Shown here piece after piece: positions 24,616 through 44,979 of a stretch of DNA of 64,000 bases. Position 1 is the stretch's first letter, and every line of letters begins with the position of its first letter. The notes beneath the pieces were generated by a model. That model was given only the letters and a program-made list of their open reading frames with translations, was not told where the DNA came from and made no database searches. A program made the position numbers and the translations under genes. This DNA comes from Rhizobiaceae bacterium (lineage in GTDB: Bacteria > Pseudomonadota > Alphaproteobacteria > Rhizobiales > Rhizobiaceae): positions 62,001 through 126,000 of the forward strand of contig JABABQ010000041.1 in NCBI GenBank assembly GCA_014238155.1. The letters run 5' to 3'.

Positions 24616-24632
24616 CTTGCCTGAAACGTTTG
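24616..24632 (-). promoter_or_regulatory. Putative FtcR/Rem site upstream of flgE
   Basis: Minus strand reads CAAACGTTTCAGGCAAG, ending 49 nt from the flgE start codon. It matches the copies before flgB, the DUF1217 gene and motA in sequence, orientation and distance. An inverted repeat (GCCTGA/TCAGGC, 24619-24639) overlaps it and reaches into the end of ftcR. Confidence 0.5.
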
Positions 24633-24633
24633 G

Positions 24634-25359
24634 TCAGGCGGAAGCTCCCACCACGCCGGATCCAGAAAGTTCAAGGCTTTCTCTGACTTGCACTGGCATC
24701 AGGCGATAGCCGAGATATCTCTTTGAATCGATTGGGTCATAGCCCAGAGCATTGCGCAACTTCTTACGCAATTTGCTGATGTGGCTTTCAATGACATTTT
24801 CCTCAACGTCCTCGTTGAAGACACCGTAAATAGCGCTGAAAATTTGCGATTTGTTGGCCCGACGGTCGCCAATAGAAGCAAGATATTCCAGAATTCGCCG
24901 TTCCCGGCGAGGCAGCGGAAACGTTTGATCGTCAATGGCAGGATCACGCCCGTCAAGATAAATGTGGAGCCGGTCCAGATGAACACAACTTTCCTTGTTG
25001 GCCGTGCGCCGCTTGATCGCAGCTATACGGGCGATGATTTCTCTGACGTGAACCGGTTTTTTGACGACGTCATCAACGCCACTTTCAAACAGTTTTAACG
25101 TGTCCTCCAGCGACGACTGATCGAGGAGTGCGATGACCGGTGCGTTGGTTTTTTCACGGATGGCCGCGGGAGAAAGGCCCTCCATCTCAGACACACCGAT
25201 CAAGCACGCCCCTACCGAAGTTAAATCTTCCTCGCTTGCAGAATTCATCCACCCATCGAATTCTACCTGGTCAAATCCTGCACTGGGAAATCCCTCATTT
25301 CCAAACTGCGATGAAAAGCCCTGCTGTACCAGTTCGCGTTCATCAATTATTACGATCAC
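24634..25359 (-). CDS. ftcR: FtcR/Rem-type orphan response regulator
   Basis: OmpR-family regulator of flagellar genes, 241 aa. An atypical receiver domain (1-115) precedes a winged-helix DNA-binding domain (~130-225, with RRERRILEYLASIGDRRANK and ENVIESHISKLRKKL). The usual phosphoacceptor aspartate is replaced: the strand-3 end reads CLIG (Gly55), while the distal KPVHVREI lysine is kept. In Sinorhizobium (Rem) and Brucella (FtcR) the homologue acts below VisNR and activates structural genes. Neighbours fliK, motC and flgE match that locus. Confidence 0.88.
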   Translation of the reverse strand: MIVIIDERELVQQGFSSQFGNEGFPSAGFDQVEFDGWMNSASEEDLTSVGACLIGVSEMEGLSPAAIREKTNAPVIALLDQSSLEDTLKLFESGVDDVVKKPVHVREIIARIAAIKRRTANKESCVHLDRLHIYLDGRDPAIDDQTFPLPRRERRILEYLASIGDRRANKSQIFSAIYGVFNEDVEENVIESHISKLRKKLRNALGYDPIDSKRYLGYRLMPVQVRESLELSGSGVVGASA

Positions 25360-25380
25360 GAATATTCCCCCGAATCATTA

Positions 25381-25451
25381 TTACCCTGTGGATAACCGTA
25401 AAGGGGGTAAGGAATCCGCGACTATTGCAAAATATTGCATGCAAGATCTTG
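25381..25451. promoter_or_regulatory. Palindromes upstream of ftcR
   Basis: Three dyads lie between the ftcR start and the transglycosylase gene: TTACCC/GGGTAA (25381-25410), TTGCATGCAA (25435-25444) and CAAGATCTTG (25442-25451). LuxR-type dimers such as VisN/VisR bind dyads and control rem in Sinorhizobium, so these are candidate operators. This is inference from position. Confidence 0.35.
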
Positions 25452-25498
25452 AGGTTGATAAGAGGAACATAACGCCAACATTTGCTGGGAGAAGACTC

Positions 25499-26065
25499 TT
25501 AATACATTGATTTACATATGCTATTGGAAGATGTTGTATTCGTTGCAAATTTCCTGTCGATCATGTGGTGAAGTACGCGGCAGACATATTTTTTTTGTGC
25601 TGCGTGGTTTTTGTCGCCTGCATGATAACGCGCAACTGCCACTGACCAGCTGCCATGGCGGTCTTTCAGGCGCCGTAGAAAGCGAGCTGAATAGTTCACA
25701 TTAAGCCGCGGATCAAGCATTGATTCCAAGGATCGAAATTCAGCGGCGTGATATTTGTGATTGATTTGCATGCATCCAAGATCGATCAAGTTTCGTCCTA
25801 ACGCCCGTTGCCTTTTAAATATGTTCAGCGCTTCACGTTGACTGTTTGGAAAAAATGTCCGCCCCTCCACATTAAGTGCATAGGGGTGAAGGCGACCCTT
25901 TCGACCGGATTCAGCAAGCCCCACGGCATAAAGCAGGGCGATCGGAACATCGTATTTCTGAGCTGCCAGATAGATATGTTCTTCACAGACATTGGCTTTT
26001 GCAGTCGAAATACTGATCTGAGAGCTAAATAATATTGTGAGTAGCAGTGTTTTCTTCATCAACAT
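25499..26065 (-). CDS. Lytic transglycosylase in the flagellar cluster
   Basis: 188 aa. A signal peptide (KKTLLLTILFSSQISISTAKA) is followed by an SLT/goose-lysozyme-type domain with the catalytic glutamate in YAVGLAESG and the conserved LGCMQINHKYH. It probably opens the peptidoglycan for rod growth, replacing the muramidase domain missing from the FlgJ-like protein. The coding start overlaps the end of fliK by up to 41 nt; ATG 26065 or ATG 26059 may be used. The C-terminal ~25 residues are basic and unrecognised. Confidence 0.8.
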   Translation of the reverse strand: MLMKKTLLLTILFSSQISISTAKANVCEEHIYLAAQKYDVPIALLYAVGLAESGRKGRLHPYALNVEGRTFFPNSQREALNIFKRQRALGRNLIDLGCMQINHKYHAAEFRSLESMLDPRLNVNYSARFLRRLKDRHGSWSVAVARYHAGDKNHAAQKKYVCRVLHHMIDRKFATNTTSSNSICKSMY

Positions 26066-27554
26066 TCGTCATGTCTTTTGCGGGTTGGCTGTTGTCTTCT
26101 GCCGTACGATTGTCCCGCTGCGACGTTCCGGTTTCGGACTTGCCTGCGGCACCCCCATATTCTGATTGTGCAGTGCTTTGAAATTGTGATGTATTTTCCG
26201 ACTGTGGGCCGCTGATAGTAATGCCGTCGACCTTAAATCCCAGGTTCCGGAGGTTGTTCACCAAAGAATCCTGATCCACCAGCAGTGCCCGATAGGCTTG
26301 ATCGGTTGCCGTGCGAACTTCGATCGTCACCTGGCCCTGATGCATACGCAAACTCAGTTCCAACTTGCCCAGTTCCACCGGGTTGAGCGTCACATTCAAG
26401 GCTTGAAGTACCTTGCCGTTTGGCTTCACAGATTCGGTGAACTGCACCGAAGGGGCCGATAACATTCTGGTCCAGTTTGTATTTTCTTTAATTGCCGTAA
26501 TCAACGTCTGTGAAGGTTGCCCGAGTGTGCCAAGCGAAAGGTCGTTGACCGGTTTGACTGGTGCAGCATCTGTTGTCGGCAGCGGCATCGCAGAATTTTC
26601 CTGGTTTGAACCAGTGGCGCGAACCTGGCTGGCAACTTCACCGCGTTGATGCCCAGATGCATTTTGAAGTTCCACGCCAGAGCGGAATGTTGTGGTTTCA
26701 TTTTGAAGTGCTGCCAACGGCATCTGTTTTCGCAAGTCCGCTGCGACAGTCTGCTTCCCATCGGCTTTGCCAGATGACTTTGGCGGCATGACAACCGATT
26801 CCGCGGCCAGTGCTCTATTTGGCATTGTACCACCTGGTACGGTATCTGATGAAGACATAACCTGCCTGCTGGTGCCAGCGCGTAAATTCACAGGTTCAGA
26901 AACCACTGGGCCCATTTTCGAATTCGTTGTTTCCCCATCATTGGTGGGAACTGCCGCCGGGACGACAGGATCAATCTTTATCGGTGATTTGGTTCTTGCA
27001 ACGTCGGCACCTGCTTGCACTGCGGGGCTGCCAGCCATTGCCAAACGTTCTGCCGCCAATTCAAAACCATTAAGCAGGTTGGTTGATTCGCTGGTATCCA
27101 AATGCTCCTCAAAGGATTCGGCTTCAATTTCATCAGCCTCGGATACAGCAACACCCGTCGCGACTGGTTCACTGTTGTCTGAAAATAGTGTTTCCGGCGT
27201 AAGATTGTCTCTGGACACTGTTTCCACCTGCAAGGCGGGCTCAGCGGTATTTTCTTCCAATGACACTCCAAGTTTTTCGTTGGTGAGTATTGTATCTGAA
27301 TCTGCACTACCAAGATCTGAGTTTCCCATGCCGATATAGGCCGCCTTGGCATCACTAAATTGAATGCCGACACCAGCCTTGGCCGCAACGGAATTTTCAG
27401 CCTGGCCTTCAGGTTTCTGAATCTTGAGAGCTGAGCGCGCATCACTCAGCAAGCGGCCAAACCCGGCGCCACCCTTTTCTTGTGGTGATCCGGGCAACGA
27501 TCTGTCGGAGTGTAAAGCAGGCGTCGATTTCAAATTAACTAAATTCTGGAACAT
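26025..27554 (-). CDS. fliK: Flagellar hook-length control protein FliK
   Basis: 509 aa. The long N-terminal part (~1-350) is low-complexity, rich in Ala, Ser, Thr and Val, as expected of the molecular ruler. The C-terminal FliK domain (~370-450) is clear: LNPVELGKLELSLRMHQGQV followed by RNLGFKVDGITISG. Rhizobial homologues were once called MotD. It directly follows motC in the motB-motC-fliK order known from Sinorhizobium. Confidence 0.88.
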   Translation of the reverse strand: MFQNLVNLKSTPALHSDRSLPGSPQEKGGAGFGRLLSDARSALKIQKPEGQAENSVAAKAGVGIQFSDAKAAYIGMGNSDLGSADSDTILTNEKLGVSLEENTAEPALQVETVSRDNLTPETLFSDNSEPVATGVAVSEADEIEAESFEEHLDTSESTNLLNGFELAAERLAMAGSPAVQAGADVARTKSPIKIDPVVPAAVPTNDGETTNSKMGPVVSEPVNLRAGTSRQVMSSSDTVPGGTMPNRALAAESVVMPPKSSGKADGKQTVAADLRKQMPLAALQNETTTFRSGVELQNASGHQRGEVASQVRATGSNQENSAMPLPTTDAAPVKPVNDLSLGTLGQPSQTLITAIKENTNWTRMLSAPSVQFTESVKPNGKVLQALNVTLNPVELGKLELSLRMHQGQVTIEVRTATDQAYRALLVDQDSLVNNLRNLGFKVDGITISGPQSENTSQFQSTAQSEYGGAAGKSETGTSQRDNRTAEDNSQPAKDMTNVDEENTATHNII

Positions 27555-27555
27555 G

Positions 27556-28863
27556 TTACTCGCTCAATAGACTATCAATATCGGACAGACGCTTTTGGGT
27601 ATTGCCGATGAACTGATCGATTTCACTTTGATTCTTTTCCATTTCCATCATGGCAGAAGAAGTTGGCCTGGAGCTTGCGCCCTTGCCGACAACGTCGCCA
27701 CCGTCGTCGCTGTTATCGCTGTCGTCACGGACGCCGGTTGTTGGTATATTTTCCAGAGTGTCCTGCACCATTGGCCGCGCCGAACTCTTCGGTACACTTA
27801 CGGCGTTCGAATTGGTTTGCACATTATCGATAGGTGCTACGATATATCCCAATATTCCTCGGGCTCGTTGCAACAACCTCAAGTCAGCCGCAGCCAGTCG
27901 ATTTTGATCCAGGGCATCCAAATCGGCCAATAGCGCGTTGGGTTCTTGTGTGGTCATAGCCGAAAGCAATTGAAACAGCAGTAATTGTACCGGGTTGATG
28001 GAAAACGTATTTTTGGCACCAGACAGGTCTTCAATTTTGGCAATCGAAAATTCTGCCAGTTTCATATGACCAGACTCCAGCGCTCCCCGAACAAGATGCA
28101 TGTGAAATGCGGCCGCAAATGCCGGAGGCATCAAGTCTCCCAATTCACCGACATCATCCAGCGAAATGGTGCGCCGCATTGAAAATATGCCTTTTCGCAA
28201 CATCACCAGATATTGTTTTCGGTAAGGGGATCCAATGAAACGTCGAGCATATTGCTTGGCCATTTTGACAAAAGATCTGCCCTCGCCAAATGCCGCATGC
28301 AAAGACATTAAACGGCGCAAACTGGCCTCTTCAAGTAATGTGCCCGGAGCCGAGAGGCGCACCAGATTATATTGACTAATAGCCCGTTTAGGAACTTTGC
28401 GACTGTAAAGATTTCCCTTGGCAAAGGCCACAAAGGGCACCAGGCGACCATCCAGATCTGAGTGGTCAATATCTGCAAATCTCTTCGTGGCCTGATTTCG
28501 TTTGCGCTCCCTGTAGTCGATAACAGCTCGTGCAAGTTTGCGGTGAAGCCTTGGCGACTTAACTTCTCTAAGAGCTTCAATCACCGCGCCGGAACCGGTG
28601 CCGACGATTCCAAATATGACCAATGCGCGTATTTCTGCAGCACTCATATCGGTGGCATTGCCGGATTCAGCGATGCCTGCATCCAGCAGTTTCATCAGGT
28701 GTTTTTGCAGTGGCAATGCCGCCACGTCGCCTCGGGCAATGCGGTCCTGAACCTGAAGCAGACTGAGCATCAGTGAATCGATCTTGACGGGATCCGCCGC
28801 GCAGGCAACACCACCGGTCAGACATGTTGCAAGGATGGCAGAAATCAACCGTTTCATAGTCAC
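27556..28863 (-). CDS. motC: Periplasmic motility protein MotC
   Basis: 435 aa with a signal peptide (RLISAILATCLTGGVACAA). Matches rhizobial MotC, a periplasmic protein needed for flagellar rotation that interacts with MotB. The first possible start is a GTG overlapping the motB stop by 4 nt (GTGA); an ATG two codons later is equally possible. Its putative chaperone MotE is encoded at 37264-37797. Confidence 0.88.
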   Translation of the reverse strand: MTMKRLISAILATCLTGGVACAADPVKIDSLMLSLLQVQDRIARGDVAALPLQKHLMKLLDAGIAESGNATDMSAAEIRALVIFGIVGTGSGAVIEALREVKSPRLHRKLARAVIDYRERKRNQATKRFADIDHSDLDGRLVPFVAFAKGNLYSRKVPKRAISQYNLVRLSAPGTLLEEASLRRLMSLHAAFGEGRSFVKMAKQYARRFIGSPYRKQYLVMLRKGIFSMRRTISLDDVGELGDLMPPAFAAAFHMHLVRGALESGHMKLAEFSIAKIEDLSGAKNTFSINPVQLLLFQLLSAMTTQEPNALLADLDALDQNRLAAADLRLLQRARGILGYIVAPIDNVQTNSNAVSVPKSSARPMVQDTLENIPTTGVRDDSDNSDDGGDVVGKGASSRPTSSAMMEMEKNQSEIDQFIGNTQKRLSDIDSLLSE

Positions 28864-30347
28864 AGCACTTCAAGCAGAATTTCGATGCGTCTGTTCTCTT
28901 CAGCTTCGGGATCACCGGGAACACGTAATACCCGATCGGAAAACCCAACGACCTGCGAAACTCTTTTTTCTTGCAGGCCGCCTCTTTCCAACATCAAACG
29001 AGCCGCATGGGCCCGGGCAGTGGAAAGTCGCCAATTGTCATAGTCCTTTCCGGAATAGGGTCGCCCATCGGTGTGCCCATAGACCCGGACTTTTCCCGGG
29101 CGGGAGGACAATACCGTGGAGATTTCTGCCATCGCCAGAACCACTTCGCCTTTTGGAATGGCAGATCCTACCTGGAACATGCTGAACCCGAACTGATCTG
29201 TAATCGAGATCAACACACCGTCGTCCTGAATCTTAACGGAGAGGCTTTCCGATATTTGTTCAGACCTACCCAACTTCGCTTCAAGACGCTGTTTGATCTG
29301 TTGACGGATATCGTGCGCCTCAGACTTAATTTTTTCAGCCGTCTCAGCAACCTTTTCTGCTTTCTTCCGCGCCTCGGCTTTGGCGAATTCTTCTGCTTTC
29401 TTCCGCACCTCGGCCTTAGCGAATTCTTCAGCCTTCATTTTTTTCTCGGCTTCCAGTTCCTCGGCCGCTTTCGGCATTTTTTCAGCCTCTGCTATCTCAG
29501 CTGCATCATGCGCCTCTGCATTCGCATCTGCGGCCTTCGCCTTTGCATCTGGGGCCTTCGCCTTTGCATCAAGGGCCTTCGTCTCACCCTCGGCTTTCTC
29601 CAATTTTTTGGATGATTTATCTTTATTTCCAGCAAGTTGTGTTTGTCCAGCAGCAGTAGCACCATCTCTTTGTTCAACCTCCAGACTGGCTGCAAGGACG
29701 TAATCATCCAGTTTTACCGGGCTGTCCAATCCACGCTGTTCCAACGTTCCCTGATCTGACGTTTTCTCGCCGGGTCCAGCGTGATTGGTCTCAGCATTTG
29801 CCACCTGCATCGCCAGAGATTGCTCGTCCTCGGGTGATTTCATCACCTCGGCGAACGGATCCAGCAAGGCGTCTTCCTGGTTAAGGACGGCTTCGGAGAA
29901 TTCTTCCTGAACGCTCATTGCAACTTCAAGTTTCTCAATTTCGGATTTTGCCAGATCATCCAGAACAGCAAATGGGTCTTTGAAGAAATCTTCCTCACGT
30001 ACGGTTGTTTCTGAAACCTCAATTTCCTGTTTTTGTCTGTTCTGTCCGTCGTTCTTTTTATCTTCTTCGTCGTCTTCTTCTGCTGGCAAATCAGAACTTG
30101 AGGATTCTTCAAGACCCTTGATGCTGCGAGTCCGATCAATAAGTTTGACGGGATTAAAATAGCTGGCCACGGATTTTTTAGTTTTTTCATTGGCGGCATT
30201 GACCAACCACAAAACTAGAAACAGCGCCATCATTGCCGTCATGAAGTCAGCAAAAGCAATTTTCCAGGCACCGCCGTGATGGCCGTCACCGCCTCCGCCC
30301 GAACGTTTGACAATGATGATTTCTTGTTTTTCTTCTTCGGCACTCAT
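28860..30347 (-). CDS. motB: Flagellar motor stator protein MotB (long, repeat-containing)
   Basis: 495 aa. One N-terminal membrane helix with the stator motif FADFMTAMMALFLVLWL places the proton-carrying aspartate at residue 34. The C-terminal OmpA-like peptidoglycan-binding domain (~385-495) has VYGHTDGRPYSGKDYDNWRLS and NRRIEILLEV. Between them lies an unusually long acidic then Lys/Ala/Glu-rich linker with internal repeats. It overlaps the fliH-like gene and motC by 4 nt each. motA lies far away, at 45027. Confidence 0.93.
   Translation of the reverse strand: MSAEEEKQEIIIVKRSGGGGDGHHGGAWKIAFADFMTAMMALFLVLWLVNAANEKTKKSVASYFNPVKLIDRTRSIKGLEESSSSDLPAEEDDEEDKKNDGQNRQKQEIEVSETTVREEDFFKDPFAVLDDLAKSEIEKLEVAMSVQEEFSEAVLNQEDALLDPFAEVMKSPEDEQSLAMQVANAETNHAGPGEKTSDQGTLEQRGLDSPVKLDDYVLAASLEVEQRDGATAAGQTQLAGNKDKSSKKLEKAEGETKALDAKAKAPDAKAKAADANAEAHDAAEIAEAEKMPKAAEELEAEKKMKAEEFAKAEVRKKAEEFAKAEARKKAEKVAETAEKIKSEAHDIRQQIKQRLEAKLGRSEQISESLSVKIQDDGVLISITDQFGFSMFQVGSAIPKGEVVLAMAEISTVLSSRPGKVRVYGHTDGRPYSGKDYDNWRLSTARAHAARLMLERGGLQEKRVSQVVGFSDRVLRVPGDPEAEENRRIEILLEVL
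29355..29570. repeat. In-frame repeats encoding the MotB linker
   Basis: A 36-nt unit (two copies from 29355 and 29391) encodes EEFAKAE-R-KKA. A 21-nt unit (copies at 29532 and 29553) encodes DAKAKA-. Copies differ at a few bases, so the array is a decaying or slowly changing tandem repeat inside motB. Confidence 0.8.
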
Positions 30348-31033
30348 CGGTTCAGCGCCTTATCGATTTTCTTGGCCCAGTCGCCAATTCGAGTGGAGAG
30401 AATTTGTTCGTTGAGACGGACAACCAGGTCGGTTGAATCTGATTGTTCAACGTCGATTTGACAAGTTCCGCCTGCCAATGCTGTTGAAACCGCATTTGTC
30501 AGATTTGCGGGTCCGCTGAGTTTAATGCGATCAATTGCTTCGGTTTTGATGGCATGTTTAATGTCACTAACCAATTGTTCTATGCTGGCGCTGGACAGGC
30601 GCTGCTGCAGCAATTGCTCGAGCGATTGCACCAACATAAATTCCAACTTGTCGGCGACCTGATCTATTAATCCCGATTGCAGATCCTGCAACTGTGACAT
30701 GATTTCATTGTTATGCGCGGCTTCCATTTGTTCCAACTCGGCAGCATGTTGAACTCGCAAATCATCCAATCCATCTACCTGATCTTCAACGAGCACAATT
30801 GCGGGTTCTGATACTTCTTCTTGGAGCGCCGGGCCGCCTTGCAGTTGGTCCAGTTCGGACGCGAGCCTGGCGAGGTCATCGTCTTCATTAACCGGTTGAA
30901 TGTCGGATTGATCCACCCAAATCTGTTGATCAGCCGGTTGCCCAAATAGCGGTTTGAATTCCTGCCCGCGCGGCCGAATGTGGTCTTCACCTTTGGAAAA
31001 ATCGGGCAGGTGCGAAAATCCAGGAGCAGTCAT
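30344..31033 (-). CDS. FliH-like export ATPase regulator
   Basis: 229 aa. An acidic N-terminal half is followed by a helical segment (~95-150) and a C-terminal domain whose layout fits FliH/SctL: LSGPANLTNAV, then a VEQSDSTDLVVRLNEQIL-ST-IGDW ending. FliH holds the FliI ATPase at the export gate. It lies between fliF and motB with 1- and 4-nt overlaps. Sequence similarity to textbook FliH is weak, so the call rests on architecture and position. Confidence 0.6.
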   Translation of the reverse strand: MTAPGFSHLPDFSKGEDHIRPRGQEFKPLFGQPADQQIWVDQSDIQPVNEDDDLARLASELDQLQGGPALQEEVSEPAIVLVEDQVDGLDDLRVQHAAELEQMEAAHNNEIMSQLQDLQSGLIDQVADKLEFMLVQSLEQLLQQRLSSASIEQLVSDIKHAIKTEAIDRIKLSGPANLTNAVSTALAGGTCQIDVEQSDSTDLVVRLNEQILSTRIGDWAKKIDKALNR

Positions 31034-32694: not shown

Positions 32695-32728
32695 CGCTTC
32701 CTAACAAAACTTCTCTCACGTTAACGAT

Positions 32729-32737
32729 TGAAGCTTG
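32729..32737 (-). promoter_or_regulatory. Half of the putative FtcR element upstream of fliF
   Basis: Minus strand reads CAAGCTTCA, identical to the left part of the element at flgB and motA, but the second CAAG half-site is missing and the distance to the start codon is about 13 nt shorter than at flgB. Weak evidence that fliF is controlled differently. Confidence 0.3.
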
Positions 32738-32770
32738 TGCGGATATGACCAGCCCTGCCTTTTGACCATG

Positions 32771-32832: not shown

Positions 32833-33756
32833 TTAACGGAACAGAGACAGAATAGTCTGGGAACTGCCATTGGCGATTGCCAGAGCCTGTGTTCCCAACT
32901 GTTGTTGTGTCTGCAATGCCGACAAACGTGTTGATTCCTTTGTCATATCTGCATCAACCAGTGCGCCAATTCCGCGCTCGATTGCATTCATCAGATTGGA
33001 AACAAAGTCGTTCTGCATATCAATACGTCCTTTTGACGAACCGATATCGGAGGCAGCCGTAGTCATGCTGCTGATCGCTGTATCAACTTCCGAAATCATT
33101 TCATCAAGATCGGTATCATCAAAGTTGGCAGCAGTGATATCCAGCGTTGAGATAGAAACCGTTACTGCGCCAGCACCTGTCGTGGTGAAGTCGGTGTCAA
33201 GAATACCGGATGCTGCCGCATTGGCATCAAATAGCTTGATGGCGGAGGTATCAATGTCGACCGTACCAACAGAGACGGTGCCGTCAGCTGCACGGTTAAA
33301 CGATGCAACAACCTGCTTGGTCGCAGTATAACCAGTCGCTGCAGAATCCTGTGACAACCAGTTTTCACCACTGAAGCTTGCCGATGTGGCGATGCTGGTA
33401 AGCTGATTTTGAAGTTCGCCAATTTCACTTTGAATTTTTGCCTTGTCGACACCTGGCTCACGGGCAGCGACCAGCTTGCTCTTGATTTCATCAACAACAT
33501 CAATGGCGCTGTTAATACCGGTGTATGCAACATCGGCCTTTGCAGCTCCAAGGCCCAGGGCGTCCTGAACGGAACTCAAAGCTTTATTGTCTGAGCGCAT
33601 GGTCGTCGCAATTGACCAATATGCAGCGTTGTCAGAAGCCTCTCCGACCCGCAAGCCGGTAGAAATGCGAGCCTGAGTGGTTTCAAGCGCCTGATTGGTA
33701 GCCTGCAAGGATTTTAATGCCGTCATTGCGGCAGAGTTTGTCATAATACTGGACAC
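32833..33756 (-). CDS. Flagellin (fla2)
   Basis: 307 aa, GTG start preceded by a GGGGGA site. Nearly the same as fla3 over the N-terminal ~130 residues and the C-terminal ~70, with most differences in the centre (~130-200), which shows a recent tandem duplication. Conserved filament-core ends are intact (ISTGLRVGEASDNAAYWSI; LSALQTQQQLGTQALAIAN). Confidence 0.95.
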   Translation of the reverse strand: MSSIMTNSAAMTALKSLQATNQALETTQARISTGLRVGEASDNAAYWSIATTMRSDNKALSSVQDALGLGAAKADVAYTGINSAIDVVDEIKSKLVAAREPGVDKAKIQSEIGELQNQLTSIATSASFSGENWLSQDSAATGYTATKQVVASFNRAADGTVSVGTVDIDTSAIKLFDANAAASGILDTDFTTTGAGAVTVSISTLDITAANFDDTDLDEMISEVDTAISSMTTAASDIGSSKGRIDMQNDFVSNLMNAIERGIGALVDADMTKESTRLSALQTQQQLGTQALAIANGSSQTILSLFR

Positions 33757-34101: not shown

Positions 34102-35025
34102 TTATCTAAACAGTGACAGGATCGACTGTGCACTACTATTGGCAATGGACAACGCCTGAATGCCAAGCTGCTGTTGCGTCTGCAAGGCAGACAGTCGGGT
34201 AGATTCCTTCGACATATCCGCATCCACCAGCGTGCCGACGCCTCTGTCAATCGCATCCATCAGATTTGCCACAAAATCGGATTGCATATCTATGCGCCCT
34301 TTGGACGCGCCAAGATCTGATGCCGACGTGGTCATCGAACCCAATGCCCCATCGACAGCCGAGATCATCTCGTCAAGATCAGTAGTATCAATACTGGCGG
34401 CTGTAATATCCAGCGAATAAACCGAAACAGTTACTGCACCAGCTCCGGTCGTTGTAAAATCTGTATCCAGGATGCCTGAAGCAGCTACGTTGGCGTCAAA
34501 CAATTTGGTCGCTGAAATGCTTATTGAAACAGTTCCAACGGAGACACTGCCATCCGAAGCGCGGTTGAATGAGCCGACAATTTCCTTGGTGATAGAGTAG
34601 CCGACGGCGGCTGAATCCTGAGAAAGCCAGTTTTCTCCGCTGAAGCTTGCCGATACCGCAACACTGCTCAGCTGGCTCTGAAGTTCCCCAATTTCACTTT
34701 GGATCTTGCTTTTATCGACGCCGGGTTCGCGTGCAGCAACCAGTTTGGATTTGATTTCATCAACCACGTCAATTGCAGAATTCATACCGGTGTAGGCGAC
34801 ATCAACTTTGGCAGCACCTAATCCCAATGCATCCTGAACCGTACCCAATGCCTTGTTATCCGACCGCATTGTAGTCGCTATCGACCAATAGGCGGCGTTG
34901 TCGGAAGCCTCTCCAACTCTTAATCCTGTAGAAATGCGGGATTGGGTCATCTCAAGTGACCTGTTGGTCGCTTGCAAAGATTTCAACGCCGTCATTGCGG
35001 CGGAGTTAGTCATTATACTGGACAC
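34102..35025 (-). CDS. Flagellin (fla3)
   Basis: 307 aa, GTG start with an AGGGGA-type site. First of the tandem pair; closely matches fla2 in both filament-core ends and diverges in the centre. Each gene has its own promoter element and terminator, so they are probably separate transcripts. Confidence 0.95.
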   Translation of the reverse strand: MSSIMTNSAAMTALKSLQATNRSLEMTQSRISTGLRVGEASDNAAYWSIATTMRSDNKALGTVQDALGLGAAKVDVAYTGMNSAIDVVDEIKSKLVAAREPGVDKSKIQSEIGELQSQLSSVAVSASFSGENWLSQDSAAVGYSITKEIVGSFNRASDGSVSVGTVSISISATKLFDANVAASGILDTDFTTTGAGAVTVSVYSLDITAASIDTTDLDEMISAVDGALGSMTTSASDLGASKGRIDMQSDFVANLMDAIDRGVGTLVDADMSKESTRLSALQTQQQLGIQALSIANSSAQSILSLFR

Positions 35026-37797: not shown

Positions 37798-38897
37798 TAT
37801 TGCAAAACCAGTTCTGCTTGTAGCGCACCGGCGCTTTTGATGGCTTGAAGGATGGCAATGATGTCGGTGGGTTTCACGCCAAGCTGATTGAGACCGCGAA
37901 TGAGCTCTTGAAGATCGGTACCGTCGACCGTCGCGATCTGCCCCGAATCTTCGATCGCAGTGATCTCGGTATTCGGTTCAACTGCAGTTACGCCTTCAGA
38001 AAATGGATTGGGTTGCACCACATTGGGTAACTCACTCACCCGAACCGAAAGCGTTCCATGGCTGACGGCAACTTTGGAAATTTTGACGTTTTCACCAATC
38101 ACAACCGTGCCAGTGCGTTCATCCAGGACCACGCGAGCAACGGTATCGGTTTTTACCCGAAGGTTTTCGATTTCAGCAACAAACCGTGCCGTCGAAATAT
38201 TGCGGGGTTTGGTCAAGGTGATCGTTGCTGAGTCCCGTTCCTGCGCGGCGCGGGCACCATAGGCGCGCATTGTAAATTTGTTGATTGTGTCGGTCACGCG
38301 AACCGCGGTTGAAAAATCCGGATTACGCAATTGCATATCCATCACACTGAAATCTGAAAGCTTGTCGCTCAACCCCTGTTCAACCACCGCACCATTAGGA
38401 ATGCGCCCTGTGGTTGGCACACCGCGGGTCAGCGTTTCGGCCTGTCCTTCAGCTTGAAAGCCCGATACGACCACTGCCCCCTGAGCGGCGGCGTAGGTTT
38501 CCAGATCGGCACCTCTCAAAGGGGTCATCACTAATGTGCCCCCGGAAAGTGAGGTCGCATCGCCAATTGAGGAAACTGTCACGTCCAAACGCGCACCTGG
38601 CGTTGCGAACACGGGCAGTTTTGCTGTGACGATGACGGCCGCCAGGTTTTTCGACCGGGCAGCGCGGCTGCCGGAAGCGATGCCAAGACGCGACAACATC
38701 GCTTTGAGAGACTGTTCGGTAAAGGGTGAATTTCTCAGACCATCGCCAGTGCCCTGAAGTCCAACGACCAATCCATACCCCACAAGCATGTTCTCGCGCG
38801 CAATCTGGAGATTGGCGATGTCTTTCAAACGCGATGATGCAGATGCTGGCCAGGCCGTGACAATAATGACCAGCAAAACTACAAGTATCCGCATCAC
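37797..38897 (-). CDS. flgI: P-ring protein FlgI
   Basis: 366 aa with a signal peptide and the conserved N terminus RLKDIANLQIARENMLVGYG and C terminus LIRGLNQLGVKPTDIIAILQ. Periplasmic ring around the rod. It overlaps flgA by 4 nt; FlgA assists its assembly. Confidence 0.95.
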   Translation of the reverse strand: MMRILVVLLVIIVTAWPASASSRLKDIANLQIARENMLVGYGLVVGLQGTGDGLRNSPFTEQSLKAMLSRLGIASGSRAARSKNLAAVIVTAKLPVFATPGARLDVTVSSIGDATSLSGGTLVMTPLRGADLETYAAAQGAVVVSGFQAEGQAETLTRGVPTTGRIPNGAVVEQGLSDKLSDFSVMDMQLRNPDFSTAVRVTDTINKFTMRAYGARAAQERDSATITLTKPRNISTARFVAEIENLRVKTDTVARVVLDERTGTVVIGENVKISKVAVSHGTLSVRVSELPNVVQPNPFSEGVTAVEPNTEITAIEDSGQIATVDGTDLQELIRGLNQLGVKPTDIIAILQAIKSAGALQAELVLQ

Positions 38898-39355
38898 AGG
38901 GCTCCTGTGATCAAAGATCCATCACTACGCACCCGCGCCACAAATATCTTTCCACTCGAAGGATTACGCATGCGGATCGTATCACCCGCCGCTGCGTCTG
39001 AAAGCGCCACGCAAACCAGACTGATGGCCAGCGCACCGCTGGAAAACTGCACCCGTTTCAAAGAACCGGCCTTGATCAATGGTGCGGGTTGAGCAGATCC
39101 GATTTTGATAAACCGACCGGGCAGGATTGTCCGTTTGGCCTGCTGGCCGACAATTTCCTGAGCGTTGCTGACAAAGCGATAACTGATCTGTGGTTGTCGG
39201 ATCAGTTTTACGGATTTCAGATCCATTTCTTCAATAATCTGGCCAGGATAAATCGTTCGCTTTGCCACGACAGCAAATTCGGCGGCCTGCACAGCCATCG
39301 TTGAAATGATGAACCCTGCACAAAGCAGGGTCACAAATTTTGCAACAATCCTCAC
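38894..39355 (-). CDS. flgA: P-ring assembly chaperone FlgA
   Basis: 153 aa, a short form. Signal peptide followed by an SAF-type region (FAVVAKRTIYPGQIIEEMDL) and the C-terminal VRMRNPSSGKIFVARV-like motif (here DTIRMRNPSSGKIFVARV). Four bases separate it from flgG. Confidence 0.93.
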   Translation of the reverse strand: MRIVAKFVTLLCAGFIISTMAVQAAEFAVVAKRTIYPGQIIEEMDLKSVKLIRQPQISYRFVSNAQEIVGQQAKRTILPGRFIKIGSAQPAPLIKAGSLKRVQFSSGALAISLVCVALSDAAAGDTIRMRNPSSGKIFVARVRSDGSLITGAL

Positions 39356-39359
39356 AACC

Positions 39360-40148
39360 CTACCGAATATTTTTGGAGATTATCGATGCCATGTCATCAG
39401 CCGCCTGAATGACTTTGGAATTCATTTCATAGCCGCGTTGAGCGGAGATCAGTTCGGTAATTTCCTTGACGGAATCAACGTTGGAGGCCTCCAGGTATCC
39501 CTGACGCATTGTGCCGTACCCAGCGTCTCCAGGCACTCCCACATTGGCATCACCAGATGCTGCAGATGCGGCAAACAGACTGCCTCCCATCGGGGTCAAA
39601 CCGACTTCATTGGCGAACGTTGCCAAGGTAATCTGACCAAGGTCTTGCAAATCCTGCTGTGCGGGAAGTCGGGCAAAAACCTGGCCGGTGTCGTTAATAA
39701 TTACTTCAATTGCGTCAATTGGCACCGTGATGTTTGGACTGACCAACAAGCCGTCCAGATTTACCAGCTGACCACCCGCATTGGTGTTCAACGCACCTGA
39801 CCGCGAATAATAGGTCTGGCCGTCACCTCCCTCGATCTGCAGCCAGCCATTGCCCTGAATCGCCAGGTCGAGCCGGTTGCCAGTGCTGGTCAAGGCACCT
39901 TGCAAATGAACATTACGCACGGCGGATATTTGAACACCCGAGCCGATATGCGCACCTTCCGGCACGATATTGCTGTCTGCCTGGCTGGGAACGCCACTGG
40001 CGCGTTCGGTCTGGTAAATCAGATCGGTGAATTCGGCCCGGGCACGTTTGAAGCCTGTGGTGTTGATGTTTGCAATGTTGTGGGCAATGACCTCAAGATT
40101 TTTCTGCTGGGCATTCATGCCAGTCGCAGCAATGGAAAGTGCACGCAT
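39360..40148 (-). CDS. flgG: Distal rod protein FlgG
   Basis: 262 aa. N-terminal [20 protein letters not shown] and [20 protein letters not shown] plus C-terminal [20 protein letters not shown] are the defining motifs. Exported subunit of the distal rod. Confidence 0.96.
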
Positions 40149-40159
40149 AATTTCTTCCT

Positions 40160-40483
40160 TTAAATAGCCATTCGACTGATTTCGAGATAGGCGCTGACAA
40201 CTTTGTCCCGCACCGCGATTGCGATCTGCAACGATTGTTCGGCGCTCATCACAGCCTCGGCCACTTCTCGCGGTCCTGTATCACCGCGAAGACCGCCAAT
40301 CGCTGCAGTTTCTGCAGTGTTTAATTTGTCTATTGTTGACTCACCCACCGACGCCAAGACATCAGCAAAGGTCCCCACGCCATTTGCGGCTGCAGTCTGG
40401 GAGGAGGTAACTGCGGGAACCTTTGCCGAATCCGTCGATAGTGACGGAATTCCTAGTGCAGCAGCTGTAACTGGATCTATCAT
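40160..40483 (-). CDS. fliE: Rod-MS ring junction protein FliE
   Basis: 107 aa with the C-terminal FliE motif ([20 protein letters not shown], then SAYLEISRM). Adjoins flgC with a one-base overlap. Confidence 0.93.
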
Positions 40484-40899
40484 TACGATGGCCTCATCAG
40501 TTCAATTGTCATCGACACAAGATCACGCACTTGTTTGACCACCTGAAGATTAGCTTCATAGGAGCGATTGGCCTCACGCATGTCGGCCATTTCAACCAGT
40601 ACGTTGACATTGGGCATTTTGACGTAACCGGAATCGTCTGCCGCAGCATGACCCGGGTCAAATTCTATTGGAAACGAAGAATAATCCAGACCGACCTGAT
40701 TTGCCTTGATCAAGTTCAGTCCGGCAGCACGGTCCATTTCCGCAGTAAAACTAATTGTCTTGCGCTGATAGGGATCGCCACCGGAAGCCTTTGCGGTTGA
40801 TTGGGCGTTGGCGATATTTTCCGACACGACCCGCAAGCGGTTGGATTGAGCATTCAATCCGCTTCCGGCAATTCGCATGGCAGCTGTAAGCGGGTCCAT
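40483..40899 (-). CDS. flgC: Proximal rod protein FlgC
   Basis: 138 aa. Conserved ends: [20 protein letters not shown] at the N terminus and [20 protein letters not shown] at the C terminus, with the FlgC-typical [11 protein letters not shown]. Overlaps flgB by one base. Confidence 0.95.
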
Positions 40900-41279
40900 T
40901 ATCCACCCCTTGTGGTCATCAAAATCATTCGGTGGAACGATTTTATTATGGCTGTATTCAGTTCGTAGGTGCGGCGCACCTCGCCAGCAGAGATAAGTTC
41001 ATCTTCGACACTCACCCGCTGATCCGACTTGGATGACGCATCAACTTCACGTTCCGACACGTTGTAAGCACCTTTTTCGGTGGAGCCTGATATGTGGCTG
41101 GAACTGGTTACAGCCAACCCAGCGGCCTTCTGGCTGAGAACTTCCTTGAAAGGCGCAACATCTGACGGGGTGAAGCCATTGGTATTGGCATTGGCAATGT
41201 TATTGGCAACGACCCGTTGCCTGACGGTCGCCCATTTCGCCTGTTGCGAGGCCAATTCAAAGAGGTTTACGCTGTCCAT
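40899..41279 (-). CDS. flgB: Proximal rod protein FlgB
   Basis: 126 aa. Carries [20 protein letters not shown] and a C-terminal [15 protein letters not shown]. First gene of the ten-gene rod and ring operon down to fliP; the putative FtcR element lies 42 nt upstream of its start codon. Confidence 0.94.
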
Positions 41280-41320
41280 CGGATTTCCCTTTTCCTCCGA
41301 TGACAGAATGCAGCTTCAGT

Positions 41321-41335
41321 CTTGCGTGAAGCTTG
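41321..41335 (-). promoter_or_regulatory. Putative FtcR/Rem site upstream of flgB
   Basis: Minus strand reads CAAGCTTCACGCAAG: two CAAG half-sites in direct orientation, 11 bp apart. The same 15-mer stands before motA. Direct repeats about one helical turn apart are what OmpR-family regulators bind. Confidence 0.6.
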
Positions 41336-41373
41336 TGGTCACGCTGGACCAGCGTGTCAGGTGCCTGCAAACA

Positions 41374-42000
41374 TCAGTAAACCAGCTTTAAAACGTGGTT
41401 ATTGGAGGTCAGCAACTGCCAACCTCCCTGCCCCCGCGACAACGATTTAACCGTGCTGCCATCGGGGAGACGGGAGCCAACTGCTACTGGCAATAAATCA
41501 TCACCATCACGTATCAAGGCCCGTTCGCGCGTTGCAAACACCATCCTGAGCGAGGCATGTTCCACCAATTCAACTGACGGAGTTTCAAGCTTTTCAATTG
41601 GAGAGCGCGGTCGCAGCGCGTTTCGTAATCTTGGAATACTGGTGGGTCGGGGCCGAATGGAACCGGTGGTCACCGCATCGACATTTTTCAACTCAAGATC
41701 TGTATCGATTATCTTGACCTGCGCCAACTCGGCCAGTTGTTTAAAAAGCGGATTTCGGGTTTCGGTCACCCGTTCTCCAACCAGCGGTTCGCCATTATCA
41801 ATTCGGCCGGTAAATTCCATGACCGGTGGTCCAAACTCCGATTCATGATGATACACATAATAAGGCAGATATGAACTCCCGGCCGCCAGACAAAGGCCAA
41901 CAAAGCCCAGTCCCATATCCAGCAATCGGCTTCGGCGGCGTCGGATTTTCGCCAGCATTGACGGTTTGGGCGCTGCTTTAACTGACTGTATCTGCTTCAT
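41374..42000 (-). CDS. Single-pass membrane protein of the fliI operon
   Basis: 208 aa with a basic cytoplasmic start, one membrane helix (~28-50, MGLGFVGLCLAAGSSYLPYY) and an extracytoplasmic region that carries VDAVTTGSIRPRP. The C-terminal ~70 residues look like a small beta domain. It starts inside the end of fliI (23-nt overlap). I do not recognise the family; the position suggests a flagellar role. Confidence 0.6.
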   Translation of the reverse strand: MKQIQSVKAAPKPSMLAKIRRRRSRLLDMGLGFVGLCLAAGSSYLPYYVYHHESEFGPPVMEFTGRIDNGEPLVGERVTETRNPLFKQLAELAQVKIIDTDLELKNVDAVTTGSIRPRPTSIPRLRNALRPRSPIEKLETPSVELVEHASLRMVFATRERALIRDGDDLLPVAVGSRLPDGSTVKSLSRGQGGWQLLTSNNHVLKLVY

Positions 42001-43342
42001 TATTTTGATCCGGTTGGTTGTTGCCTTTCAAGAAGGTCACGAGGTCGTCAAATGCATTTAGCGATCCCGGTGCATCGGGTGGCTGGCAGATCGCCTCATA
42101 AATTGCAGGTACAGTTTCAACCGCCTTGTCGAGTTCGGTATCCGACCCTGGTTTCCACCCTCCCAACATTCGCAAATCCCGTGTCTCTTCAAACTTGGAA
42201 ATCATTTTGCGCAATTGCAGCACCAGATTGCGCTCCTCCGGTGTCCATACTTTTTCAGCCAGTCGAGAAATGGATGCCAGCGGATTGACCGGTGGATAGC
42301 GGCCTTCCTCGGCAATCGTCCTGTCGAGCACCAAATGCCCGTCAATAATTCCCCGAACCGCATCAGCAATGGGATCATTGTGGTCATCGCCATCCACCAA
42401 AACTGTCGCGATGGCGGTTATCGATCCAGCGCCTTCAACGCCGGCCCCAGCTCGTTCCAGCAATTTAGGTAATTGGGTGAACACCGAAGACGTATAGCCG
42501 CGGGCAACCGGTGGTTCGCCGTTCGCAACGCTGATTTCCCGCAAGGAATGGGCATAGCGGGTCAGCGAATCGAGCAATAACAGCACATTGCTTCCCTGAC
42601 GGGCAAAACTCTCACACACATCCAGAGCCAGTTCCGGCGCGCGCCGTCGCAACATCGGACTTTCATCGCTCGTCGCAACAACAGCGACTGTTTTCTGAAT
42701 CCCCGGTTCACCAATCGAATCTTCCAGAAATTCCCGCACCTCACGTCCCCGTTCGCCGACAAGCGCGACCACGACAACGTCGAAAGCATCAGACTTTGCC
42801 AACATCGACAGCAGGGTCGACTTACCAACTCCGGATCCGGCGAAAATACCCATTCGCTGCCCTCTGCAGAGCGGCGCAAAAATATCAATCACCTTAACGC
42901 CTGTTTTCAACGGCACGTTCAAGCGAGATCGCTGCATGGCACCGTTTTTGCGAGTATCCTTGGTGGTCTGCTGGCTGCCTTTCGTAAGAGGCATGGGAGG
43001 TAGTGAGTCGATTGGTTCGCCCATGGCGTTTACAACACGCCCAAGCCAATGCGGATTGGGACGTGGCAAAGCCTGCTCATCGGCGAACACCAGTTCGCCT
43101 ATTGTACAGGCGCCGTCAGTGTCGAATGGACAGATAAATGTGTGGCCACTTTCAATGCGCACGACTTCGCCCAACCTGTCTTTCCCCAGGCGCAATACCT
43201 GCCCCAACGACACCCGGTGCGAAATGCCAGCTACGGTCACCAGATTGGGTGAAACACATTCCACTGTGCCGCCATATTTTATAAGGTCGCCGGCCTGGAG
43301 GGTCGGCGGCAACAAGTCGCTCATGCGTTGCAGTGCACCCAT
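41978..43342 (-). CDS. fliI: Flagellar export ATPase FliI
   Basis: 454 aa, an F1-beta-like ATPase that drives flagellar protein export. Walker A GSGVGKST at residues 169-176, VALVGERGREVREFLEDS after it, and Walker B-type NVLLLLDSLTRYAHSLRE. It follows flgF by two bases. Confidence 0.96.
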   Translation of the reverse strand: MGALQRMSDLLPPTLQAGDLIKYGGTVECVSPNLVTVAGISHRVSLGQVLRLGKDRLGEVVRIESGHTFICPFDTDGACTIGELVFADEQALPRPNPHWLGRVVNAMGEPIDSLPPMPLTKGSQQTTKDTRKNGAMQRSRLNVPLKTGVKVIDIFAPLCRGQRMGIFAGSGVGKSTLLSMLAKSDAFDVVVVALVGERGREVREFLEDSIGEPGIQKTVAVVATSDESPMLRRRAPELALDVCESFARQGSNVLLLLDSLTRYAHSLREISVANGEPPVARGYTSSVFTQLPKLLERAGAGVEGAGSITAIATVLVDGDDHNDPIADAVRGIIDGHLVLDRTIAEEGRYPPVNPLASISRLAEKVWTPEERNLVLQLRKMISKFEETRDLRMLGGWKPGSDTELDKAVETVPAIYEAICQPPDAPGSLNAFDDLVTFLKGNNQPDQNNEADTVS

Positions 43343-43344
43343 GG

Positions 43345-44070
43345 TCAGGAGCCGGATCCAAGCGTCTTGATTGCTTCTTCCTTGGAAGCTTCAGTATCGC
43401 GGATGGAGGCGGCAATCTGATCAAATGTTCGATGAACGATGATCAGTTTACTCATCTCATCAATCGGATTAACATTTGATCCTTCAACAAAACCCTGCAG
43501 TACGCCGATACCCGCAGTATCGACGACGGGTTGCGGTTCCGTCTCGGCAATAATCCCGGAACTTCCAAAGCGCTGGAATTCCTCCGCAGGCTGATATTCA
43601 AACAATCCAATCGAACTCACCAATCTTTCGTCCTGGCGAATTATCCCGTCCTTGGCCACTTCAGGGCGCCCACCGGCAGGATTGAGTTGAATTGGAGACC
43701 CACCTGAATCGAGGACCGCATGGCCCTCCAGTGTCACAAGTTCACCTGAATCAAGCATTTTGAATCGCCCGTCTCGCGTGACAATTGTTCCCGCTGGAGA
43801 CTCAGCTGCAAACCAGGCGTCCCCTTGTATGGCAAAATCGAGGCTGGCCCCGGTTTCGGTAACCGATCCGGTTAGCGGCGATAGATAAGACTGTCCCTCA
43901 TTGACATAGGACGGTGCGCTAGCATCTACCCCGTCCAAAACCTCTTCAAACTTGATCTGCCCGGCGCGAAAGCCGGTCGTGTTTGCGTTTGCAACATTGT
44001 TGGCAATTGTGTTGAGCCGCCGTTCCAGGGCCACTTGGGACGAAAGCGATACATAAAGACTGGTGTCCAT
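43345..44070 (-). CDS. flgF: Proximal rod protein FlgF
   Basis: 241 aa. N-terminal LERRLNTIANNVANANTTGF and C-terminal GFVEGSNVNPIDEMSKLIIV identify a rod protein of the FlgF/FlgG family; length and the neighbouring fliI support FlgF. Confidence 0.92.
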   Translation of the reverse strand: MDTSLYVSLSSQVALERRLNTIANNVANANTTGFRAGQIKFEEVLDGVDASAPSYVNEGQSYLSPLTGSVTETGASLDFAIQGDAWFAAESPAGTIVTRDGRFKMLDSGELVTLEGHAVLDSGGSPIQLNPAGGRPEVAKDGIIRQDERLVSSIGLFEYQPAEEFQRFGSSGIIAETEPQPVVDTAGIGVLQGFVEGSNVNPIDEMSKLIIVHRTFDQIAASIRDTEASKEEAIKTLGSGS

Positions 44071-44085
44071 GGAAAAAGAGGCCTC

Positions 44086-44850
44086 TTATCTCAGGGTTTG
44101 GATGGTGAGCAGCAGATTGGTTGAAATGCCATAGGCAGTTCCCTGGTTGAACAAATCCAGAGACGGATTCGGCGGGCCGTTGGACGCATCCCAGATGCTG
44201 ACAAAGCGCTCAATGAATTTCGACAATTCTTCCGGCTCGGAAAAAATGCTGACATCGATCCGCTCATCCAGCATTTCAACTTGCTTGTCGATGTCGAGAA
44301 ACGCACTGGCTTCAGGTATCTGCAGAACCTGTCGCACTACCGTCGACAATGCCCGGTCAGCAAGAATTTCTTCAGTTGTTGTGAGTGACGGCGCCTTGCG
44401 TTCAAAATACAATGCCAATCTGACGCCCTCATTGGTCGCACCAGCATTTTCTTCCAATTGCTGTCGCAGAAACTTGTCGACAACCCCTTGTTGAGTTCGA
44501 TCAAAGGACGTCGTCGCAGTGTTATAACGCTCAAAATCAAAGGTCTCCGCCAGATCTCGATAGCGGCCATCCGCCATCCTGTTAACGAATGCGTCGTCTT
44601 CATCGCGCCCTTCTTCAAATACCTTGGTGACCAGTGCCTTCGCATAGTTCATTTCTTCCAAACCATGTGCCTTCATCACATAGCGAAACAAACGGTCGTC
44701 TTCGACCAGATCTTCGATCGATTTAACGTTGCCGATATTCTCCAGATAATATTCGGTGTCCCGCTTGACGCGTGCGTCTGACTGAACGACTTCCAGCGAA
44801 CGGGGTAAATCGCGAACTGCCAATTGGTAGCCGGTAAGTGTGCTGATCAT
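44086..44850 (-). CDS. DUF1217 family flagellar protein
   Basis: 254 aa, mostly helical. It matches the DUF1217 proteins encoded next to flgF in rhizobial flagellar clusters (TGYQLAVRDLPRSLEVVQSD near the start; STNLLLTIQTL at the end). The molecular function is unknown. First gene of the operon with flgF, fliI and the membrane protein; the putative FtcR element lies 45 nt upstream. Confidence 0.75.
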   Translation of the reverse strand: MISTLTGYQLAVRDLPRSLEVVQSDARVKRDTEYYLENIGNVKSIEDLVEDDRLFRYVMKAHGLEEMNYAKALVTKVFEEGRDEDDAFVNRMADGRYRDLAETFDFERYNTATTSFDRTQQGVVDKFLRQQLEENAGATNEGVRLALYFERKAPSLTTTEEILADRALSTVVRQVLQIPEASAFLDIDKQVEMLDERIDVSIFSEPEELSKFIERFVSIWDASNGPPNPSLDLFNQGTAYGISTNLLLTIQTLR

Positions 44851-44893
44851 CTTGTCGGGCTCCTGTTATGCCAGCCTCACAGTGCAACAGCAG

Positions 44894-44910
44894 CCTTGCG
44901 TGAGACTTTC
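44894..44910 (-). promoter_or_regulatory. Putative FtcR/Rem site upstream of the DUF1217-flgF operon
   Basis: Minus strand reads GAAAGTCTCACGCAAGG: an AAAG and a CAAG half-site 11 bp apart, with the CACGCAAG half identical to the copies before flgB and motA. It points to the minus-strand operon. Confidence 0.55.
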
Positions 44911-44964
44911 CATCCAGCCGCCACCCAAATAAATGGCACCCAGGCCTCGCGCCCATGGTCAGGT

Positions 44965-44979
44965 CAAGCTTCACGCAAG
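44965..44979 (+). promoter_or_regulatory. Putative FtcR/Rem site upstream of motA
   Basis: CAAGCTTCACGCAAG on the plus strand, 48 nt before the motA start codon, identical to the flgB copy. With the element at 44894 it forms a divergent pair within one short intergenic region. Confidence 0.6.

What the first reader, a model, noticed from the sequence alone, without database searches (positions are those of the whole stretch)
24616..44979. Four-copy direct-repeat promoter element, candidate FtcR/Rem binding site
Seen directly: CAAACGTTTCAGGCAAG (flgE), CACAAGCTTCACGCAAG (flgB), GGAAAGTCTCACGCAAG (DUF1217-flgF) and GTCAAGCTTCACGCAAG (motA). All are oriented toward their gene and end 42-49 nt before the start codon. 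Two CAAG-like half-sites stand 11 bp apart. Known: OmpR-family proteins bind direct repeats about one helical turn apart, and Rem/FtcR activates such operons. Inference: this is the FtcR box. I know of no published consensus for it.
Basis: partly seen in the sequence, partly recalled or inferred. Interest (0 to 1): 0.8.

Follow-up and report, generated by a model that had tools for sequence, protein, structure and literature searches.

The report
Shared on-switch of flagellar operons
A short repeated DNA signal sits just before several flagellum-building gene groups in this bacterium and its relatives, and it is very probably where the flagellar activator FtcR/Rem docks to turn those genes on.

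Summary
In the 4.8-Mb genome the core pattern has four exact matches, all at these promoters. Comparison turns the motif into a composite promoter, CMAG-n-YYC-RSR-CAAG-N10-TA: an 11-bp direct repeat and, 10 bp on, a -10-like TA. It recurs upstream of motA, flgB, DUF1217, flgE, fliF, flhA and the rod-binding gene in FtcR-bearing relatives. The window has one further probable site (flhA) and two weak ones (fliF, rod-binding).

Two controls tie it to FtcR. Among 154 flagellated genomes, two or more strict matches occur in 31 of 49 with FtcR and 1 of 105 without. In ten FtcR genomes with two flagellar systems, FtcR-type clusters hold 53 sites (reversed matrix 0); the other clusters, in nine of them, hold 4 (reversed 3).

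Best reading: FtcR, which lacks the phosphorylatable aspartate, binds the repeat over the -35 region and recruits RNA polymerase. Binding is not shown. The only FtcR motif I found in print (B. melitensis, TGTGGGCA) differs. The founding Rem paper could not be read, so novelty is provisional.

The parts
44963..44979 (+). FtcR box of motA (GTCAAGCTTCACGCAAG), -10-like TA at 44990-44991
   Evidence: score 29.2, highest in window
44895..44911 (-). FtcR box of the DUF1217 gene, followed by flgF and fliI (GGAAAGTCTCACGCAAG), CA at 44884-44883
   Evidence: 19.8
41321..41337 (-). FtcR box of flgB and the genes after it (CACAAGCTTCACGCAAG), CA at 41310-41309
   Evidence: 23.5
24616..24632 (-). FtcR box of flgE (CAAACGTTTCAGGCAAG), TA at 24605-24604
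   Evidence: 14.2
19219..19233 (-). probable FtcR box of flhA (TGAGTTCGGCGCAAG, then N10-TA)
   Evidence: 12.8; several relatives have one before flhA
32734..32748 (-). possible degenerate FtcR box of fliF (TCATATCCGCACAAG, then N10-TA)
   Evidence: 6.5, not significant alone; the same TCAT...CGCACAAG variant stands before fliF in three relatives
15911..15925 (-). possible FtcR box of the rod-binding protein gene (ATAGTTTCCCGCAAG, then N10-TA)
   Evidence: 7.5, not significant alone; relatives have one before this gene
24634..25359 (-). ftcR: OmpR/PhoB-type response regulator, orthologue of FtcR/Rem/LafR (name by position and similarity), directly upstream of flgE
   Evidence: Pfam Trans_reg_C and sub-threshold Response_reg; orthologues in 54 of 199 genomes, own included; Leu at the phospho-aspartate position

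Best explanation
The element is the operator-promoter of the FtcR/Rem regulon. FtcR is a response regulator with no phosphorylatable aspartate. A head-to-tail pair binds the 11-bp direct repeat (half-site CMAG/CAAG), which covers about -37 to -23 in place of a -35 hexamer; RNA polymerase with the housekeeping sigma factor is recruited to the TA-containing -10 ten bp downstream. This turns on motA-fliM-fliN-fliG-flhB, DUF1217-flgF-fliI, flgB and followers, flgE and followers, probably flhA, possibly fliF and the rod-binding gene. Shown here: the sequence architecture, its conservation, its concentration in FtcR-type flagellar clusters and its co-occurrence with FtcR. Inferred: binding, dimer orientation, sigma factor, transcription start, activation, operon extents.
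For: Exact core 4 of 4 at these promoters in the whole genome; a relaxed composite pattern gives 6 matches, 4 of them these, against 1 for the reversed control. motA and flgB upstreams of relatives carry it at near-constant distance: 118 of 120 upstream regions in a self-trained alignment. FtcR presence predicts strict matches: 120 in 54 FtcR+ genomes (reversed control 23) against 32 in 145 FtcR- genomes (reversed control 77); flagellated genomes only, two or more in 31 of 49 against 1 of 105. All 14 families with FtcR in the sample have a genome with a strict match, 12 of 14 a genome with two or more. Within dual-flagella genomes: FtcR-type clusters 53 sites (reversed 0, permuted mean 2.1), other clusters 4 (reversed 3, permuted 1.8). 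Nine FtcR+ flagellated genomes with no strict match still have relaxed boxes, 46 against 3 reversed. Motif self-similarity peaks at offset 11 (0 of 5000 column shuffles at that offset, 17 of 5000 at any offset from 3 to 14). In the recognition-helix stretch SHISKLRKKL, 7 of 10 positions are at least 90% identical and the rest at least 60% in 30 orthologues. Literature passages: Rem directly activates class II genes and is aspartate-less (PMC9812332); LafR controls lateral but not polar flagella (PMC8429497).
Against: The only FtcR binding motif I found in print is TGTGGGCA (B. melitensis ChIP-seq, 118 of 363 peaks; PMC9456535, passages). It occurs 3 times in the window, near 2 expected for a random 8-mer by my own arithmetic, and not at these promoters; exact copies occur in 0 of 12 motA/flgB/DUF1217/fliF upstreams of three Brucella-group loci, though one-mismatch copies occur in 6 of 15 upstreams, some of which overlap. 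ftcR itself has no box here, although B. melitensis FtcR is reported to autoregulate. No binding, footprint or start-site data were available. The strict pattern finds only one of the four copies in the own genome. The fliF and rod-binding sites score no better than a site inside motC before fliK (7.7) or a second fliF candidate (6.7) that I do not claim. With one mismatch allowed the core is not enriched in the genome.
Confidence: 0.87

Rival explanations
1. The element is bound by another regulator specific to this flagellar type, such as the LuxR-type pair VisN/VisR, and FtcR acts elsewhere.
For: A LuxR-type gene (GerE domain) stands at 50607-51317 beside the cluster; it and the gene at 9047-9847 match 32 and 33 of 118 loci of relatives. 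VisNR is needed for motility in several rhizobia (PMC9812332, passages).
Against: A review states that Azorhizobium and B. diazoefficiens lack visNR but have rem homologues (PMC8429497, passages), and the box occurs in FtcR-type clusters of dual-flagella genomes (I did not search those genomes for visNR). The same review has VisNR acting through rem. An 11-bp direct repeat is the expected shape for an OmpR-family protein, not for a LuxR dimer (general knowledge).
Confidence: 0.05
2. It is a core promoter read by an alternative sigma factor: the box is a long -35 element and TA the -10.
For: Fixed spacing of box to TA in the model and in many sites.
Against: The conserved block is 15 bp with an internal 11-bp direct repeat, longer than a -35 element; its presence follows FtcR. 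Sigma factor co-occurrence was not tested.
Confidence: 0.05
3. It is a CtrA box variant.
For: Same 4-N7-4 direct-repeat geometry over the -35 region; CtrA drives flagellar genes in other alphaproteobacteria (PMC6180460, start of abstract in the search listing).
Against: Half-sites are CMAG/CAAG, not TTAA; the non-FtcR flagellar clusters hold it only at chance level.
Confidence: 0.02
4. Chance resemblance plus shared ancestry of neighbouring promoters, with no function.
For: The first pattern was derived from the four copies; loose searches are at noise.
Against: Recurs at corresponding promoters across 14 families with low reversed controls.
Confidence: 0.01

Closest known systems
Rem/FtcR/LafR/ActR regulon (Rhizobiales flagellar class II genes)
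   Same: Same regulator family, same kind of target genes (motor, rod, hook, export); aspartate-less receiver.
   Different: No operator sequence for it was found in the papers I could search, apart from the B. melitensis ChIP motif TGTGGGCA, which differs.
PhoB (Pho) box
   Same: OmpR-family site replacing the -35 element; 16 of 33 S. meliloti Pho boxes with mapped starts are reported to overlap the -35, 22 to 25 nt upstream of the start (PMC3616915, passages), the position inferred here.
   Different: Half-site is CMAG/CAAG rather than the PhoB half-site (recalled as TGTCA); the regulator is reported to need no phosphorylation.
CtrA box (TTAA-N7-TTAA) and FeuP candidate site (TTCA-N7-TTCA)
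   Same: Identical 4-N7-4 geometry (PMC3616915, passages; full CtrA consensus recalled).
   Different: Different letters; concentrated in the FtcR-type flagellar system.

Membership tests
Operator of an OmpR-family activator (class II promoter) | Direct repeat with period of about one helical turn | tested here: met
   Self-similarity peaks at offset 11
Operator of an OmpR-family activator (class II promoter) | Lies over the -35 region with a -10 downstream at fixed distance | tested here: inconclusive
   TA conserved 10 bp after CAAG (T 0.82, A 0.91), CA in two of the four window copies; start sites are not mapped, so the -35 position is inferred
FtcR/Rem operator | Follows FtcR across genomes and is concentrated at its flagellar system | tested here: met
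   some strict matches lie elsewhere (chemoreceptor, CheY-like, PilZ, unknown frames), and 31 of 145 FtcR- genomes have a match (below their reversed control)
FtcR/Rem operator | Bound by FtcR/Rem protein | not testable with these tools
   No binding data; needs footprint or EMSA
FtcR/Rem operator | Matches the published B. melitensis FtcR ChIP motif TGTGGGCA | tested here: not met
   Absent from the window promoters and, as exact copy, from 12 of 12 Brucella-group upstreams
FtcR/Rem protein family (the regulator) | Receiver plus PhoB-type winged helix, aspartate-less, orthologous | tested here: met
   Leu, Ile or Val at the acceptor position in 30 of 30 orthologues examined
CtrA box | TTAA-N7-TTAA half-sites | tested here: not met
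   CMAG/CAAG

The most novel reading that the evidence does not exclude
One operator-promoter code serves every Rem/FtcR/LafR/ActR flagellar system in the order. It arose by re-lettering a CtrA-like 4-N7-4 site (TTAA to CAAG) and so moved flagella from a phosphorelay-gated regulator to one that needs no phosphate; the published TGTGGGCA motif of B. melitensis FtcR is then not its flagellar operator.
Probability: 0.3. Interest if true: 0.65.

Novelty: new member of a known kind. Interest (0 to 1): 0.5.

Why it matters
It gives a testable operator for a master activator of flagella across many families of a large bacterial order, lets its regulon be read from sequence, separates probably direct targets (motor, rod, hook, export) from the flagellin genes, which lack the box in this window, and conflicts usefully with the one FtcR motif I found in print.

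Tried and rejected
Short-core searches: CTTCACGCAAG with two mismatches in the window, YCASGCAAG genome-wide (137 matches against 126 for the reversed pattern) and the four-copy core with one mismatch are at or near noise; only the long or composite forms discriminate. The B. melitensis motif TGTGGGCA was sought and not found as an exact copy at these promoters.

A conserved 58-aa open frame behind a box in four genomes of one genus (L136-L139) was followed as a possible feedback gene. One of the four was scanned and has no Pfam or NCBIfam match; it occurs in 4 of 199 genomes, all of that genus, and not in the own genome, so it was not built on. The Sel1-repeat gene behind a box-like site in the window has one match among 118 loci, so that site is not claimed. 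Structure prediction was not used: it would not decide DNA specificity.

Literature: ten searches were allowed and seven used. No Rem, FtcR or LafR operator motif other than TGTGGGCA appeared in the listings or in the passages read; no paper was read whole and no supplement was open. The Rem paper, the MirA paper and the PubMed id I recalled for the FtcR paper are not held; the LafR paper was not looked up by id.
Full report
Observation. The genes are flgE, flgB, a DUF1217 gene followed by flgF and fliI, and motA. The gap between box and start codon is 41-48 nt. The regulator gene directly upstream of flgE (24634-25359, minus strand) has a PhoB-type DNA-binding domain and a receiver match below Pfam's cut-off.

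Chance. In the whole 4.8-Mb genome the degenerate core AMGYYTCASGCAAG has four exact matches, all at these promoters. The pattern was made from the copies, so this is post hoc; with one mismatch the genome is near noise (17 against 13 reversed). Looser searches are also at noise. The proof has to come from other genomes.

Footprint in relatives. FliI was used to fetch 80 named loci (the best 80 of 571 candidates). The best match to the four-copy matrix was then taken upstream of motA, DUF1217, flgB and flgF. motA and flgB upstreams carry a good match, its first base about 55 to 75 nt before the start, in most loci. DUF1217 carries one in many loci but not in most Mesorhizobium loci, where I suspect misplaced starts (not checked in that call; a Mesorhizobium-like genome does have it). 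flgF itself mostly lacks one, as expected inside an operon. At score 14 the four-copy matrix found 62 sites in 79 loci against 11 for its reverse and a mean of 9.2 (maximum 26) for 30 permuted matrices; at score 8 the difference is small, 1265 against 960. Refining on motA and flgB gave the composite CMAG-n-YYC-RSR-CAAG, ten little-conserved bases, then TA (120 upstream regions; 2 scored low, both in L071). This alignment is self-trained and is used as a model, not as a test. Its columns resemble each other best at offset 11.

Tests with genomes not chosen for the motif. In 199 genomes of the order, FtcR orthologues form a clear class: best E-value 1.3e-40 or lower in 54 genomes, 1.0e-22 or higher in the other 145. 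The strict composite pattern hits 42 of 54 FtcR+ genomes (120 matches, reversed control 23) and 31 of 145 FtcR- genomes (32 matches, reversed control 77). It finds only one of the four copies in the own genome, so it is not sensitive. To remove the effect of simply having flagella I used FlgI: among 154 flagellated genomes, 40 of 49 FtcR+ against 18 of 105 FtcR- have a match, and 31 of 49 against 1 of 105 have two or more. Phylogeny is not corrected for in these Fisher tests; the FtcR+ genomes lie in 14 families, all with a genome that has a strict match, 12 with a genome that has two or more.

Within-genome control. Twelve genomes gave two FlgI matches. Two without FtcR (G094, G149) were left aside; ten have FtcR. 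I took up to 40 kb around FlgI of the FtcR-type cluster in ten genomes, and of the other cluster in nine (the second FlgI of G108 was not in the list shown). In eight of the ten the FtcR-type FlgI lies on the FtcR contig near it; in G105 and G197 it was assigned by FlgI similarity. With the composite matrix at score 12 the FtcR-type clusters have 53 sites (reversed 0, permuted mean 2.1, maximum 7); 46 of the 53 precede a recognised flagellar gene. The other clusters have 4 (reversed 3, permuted mean 1.8, maximum 7), one of them before fliP. This matches what a review says of B. diazoefficiens, where LafR controls lateral but not polar flagella (PMC8429497, passages).

Exceptions. Twelve FtcR+ genomes had no strict match. 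Three of them (G063, G109, G151) are not among the genomes with a FlgI match. The flagellar regions of the other nine were fetched: all nine have relaxed boxes before flagellar genes, 46 sites against 3 reversed at score 12. Eight further FtcR-type genomes, chosen partly because they had strict matches, gave 68 sites against 6 reversed at score 11. In a family sample 133 of 151 genomes have a strict match; FtcR was not searched in most of these.

Matches outside the cluster. Of the strict matches I looked at 20 chosen places, several thought to lie away from the main cluster. Genes behind them include flgB (L148, L152, L155), flgE (L149), a frame containing FlgC (L153), a chemoreceptor (L144), a CheY-like protein (L145) and a PilZ protein (L147), but also a frame with RTX repeats, a repeat protein and frames of unknown kind that may be chance.

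Extent in the window. With the composite matrix the scores are motA 29.2, flgB 23.5, DUF1217 19.8, flgE 14.2, flhA 12.8; the reversed matrix reaches 8.8, and permuted matrices give 0.5 sites at score 12 on average. A site before a Sel1-repeat gene (15.4) and one at 8927-8953 (12.3) have no support from relatives that I could show. The fliF and rod-binding genes have weak sites (6.5 and 7.5). They would not stand alone: a site inside motC before fliK scores 7.7 and a second fliF candidate 6.7. I keep them because relatives have boxes before these genes, and the fliF variant TCAT...CGCACAAG is shared with three other genomes at 41-45 nt (window 40). In all seven the downstream half-site is CAAG; the upstream half varies. 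motB, motC, flgK, flgL, flaF, flbT, flgD and ftcR show no convincing box, nor does the flagellin tested (34102-35025).

Mechanism. If TA is at -12/-11, the repeat covers about -37 to -23, so it replaces the -35 element. That is the position reported for 16 of 33 Pho boxes in S. meliloti, and the 4-N7-4 layout is also that of the CtrA and FeuP sites (PMC3616915, passages). FtcR here has Leu at the position of the phospho-aspartate of PmrA (read from the alignment); of 30 orthologues 25 have Leu, 4 Ile and 1 Val, and the recognition-helix region is strongly conserved. Rem is described as aspartate-less, active without phosphorylation, and directly activating class II genes (PMC9812332, passages). 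B. melitensis FtcR is reported to bind upstream of fliF (PMC9456535, passages), a promoter with a box in relatives. I therefore propose binding set by FtcR supply, with recruitment of housekeeping RNA polymerase. Binding, start sites and the sigma factor are inferred.

Against. The same paper gives a different FtcR motif, TGTGGGCA, in 118 of 363 peaks. It is not at the window promoters. Exact copies are in none of 12 motA, flgB, DUF1217 and fliF upstreams of three Brucella-group loci; the 9 motA, flgB and DUF1217 upstreams all have a half-site pair with the right spacing, the 3 fliF upstreams have no strict one. One-mismatch copies of the 8-mer occur in 6 of 15 upstreams, partly overlapping regions; about 3 would be expected by my own arithmetic. 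Either that motif marks other targets, or my assignment is wrong. ftcR has no box, so autoregulation, if any, is not by this element.

Novelty. The regulator and its targets are known. The operator was not found in seven literature searches, but the key older papers could not be read, so an earlier description is quite possible. I rate it a new member of a known kind.

Noticed in passing
window 35156-35151 and 33912-33905 (minus strand): The two flagellin genes at 34102-35025 and 32833-33756 have a TTAACC(AT) element upstream (read); S. meliloti 'motif 2' (TTTGTTAACCAT, PMC3616915, passage) looks alike.
   Followed up: no
window 50552-50526 (minus): A good box-like site (15.4) about 97 nt before a Sel1-repeat gene (49817-50440); the gene has one match in 118 relatives' loci.
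   Followed up: partly
window 50607-51317 and 9047-9847: A LuxR-type regulator gene (GerE) and another gene with matches in many relatives' flagellar loci; candidates for VisR/VisN, a name from recall. The second was not scanned for domains.
   Followed up: partly
L136-L139 around 2053-2330: A box precedes a conserved 58-aa open frame of unknown family in the four genomes of genus g3 in the sample.
   Followed up: partly
L144, L145, L147: Strict matches precede a chemoreceptor, a CheY-like and a PilZ gene, suggesting a wider regulon in some genera.
   Followed up: partly
L141 and L151: Two genomes of one genus (G025, G098) have a box before a similar short open frame of unknown family.
   Followed up: no
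G042, G079, G178, G197: These genomes carry two FtcR-like proteins each.
   Followed up: no
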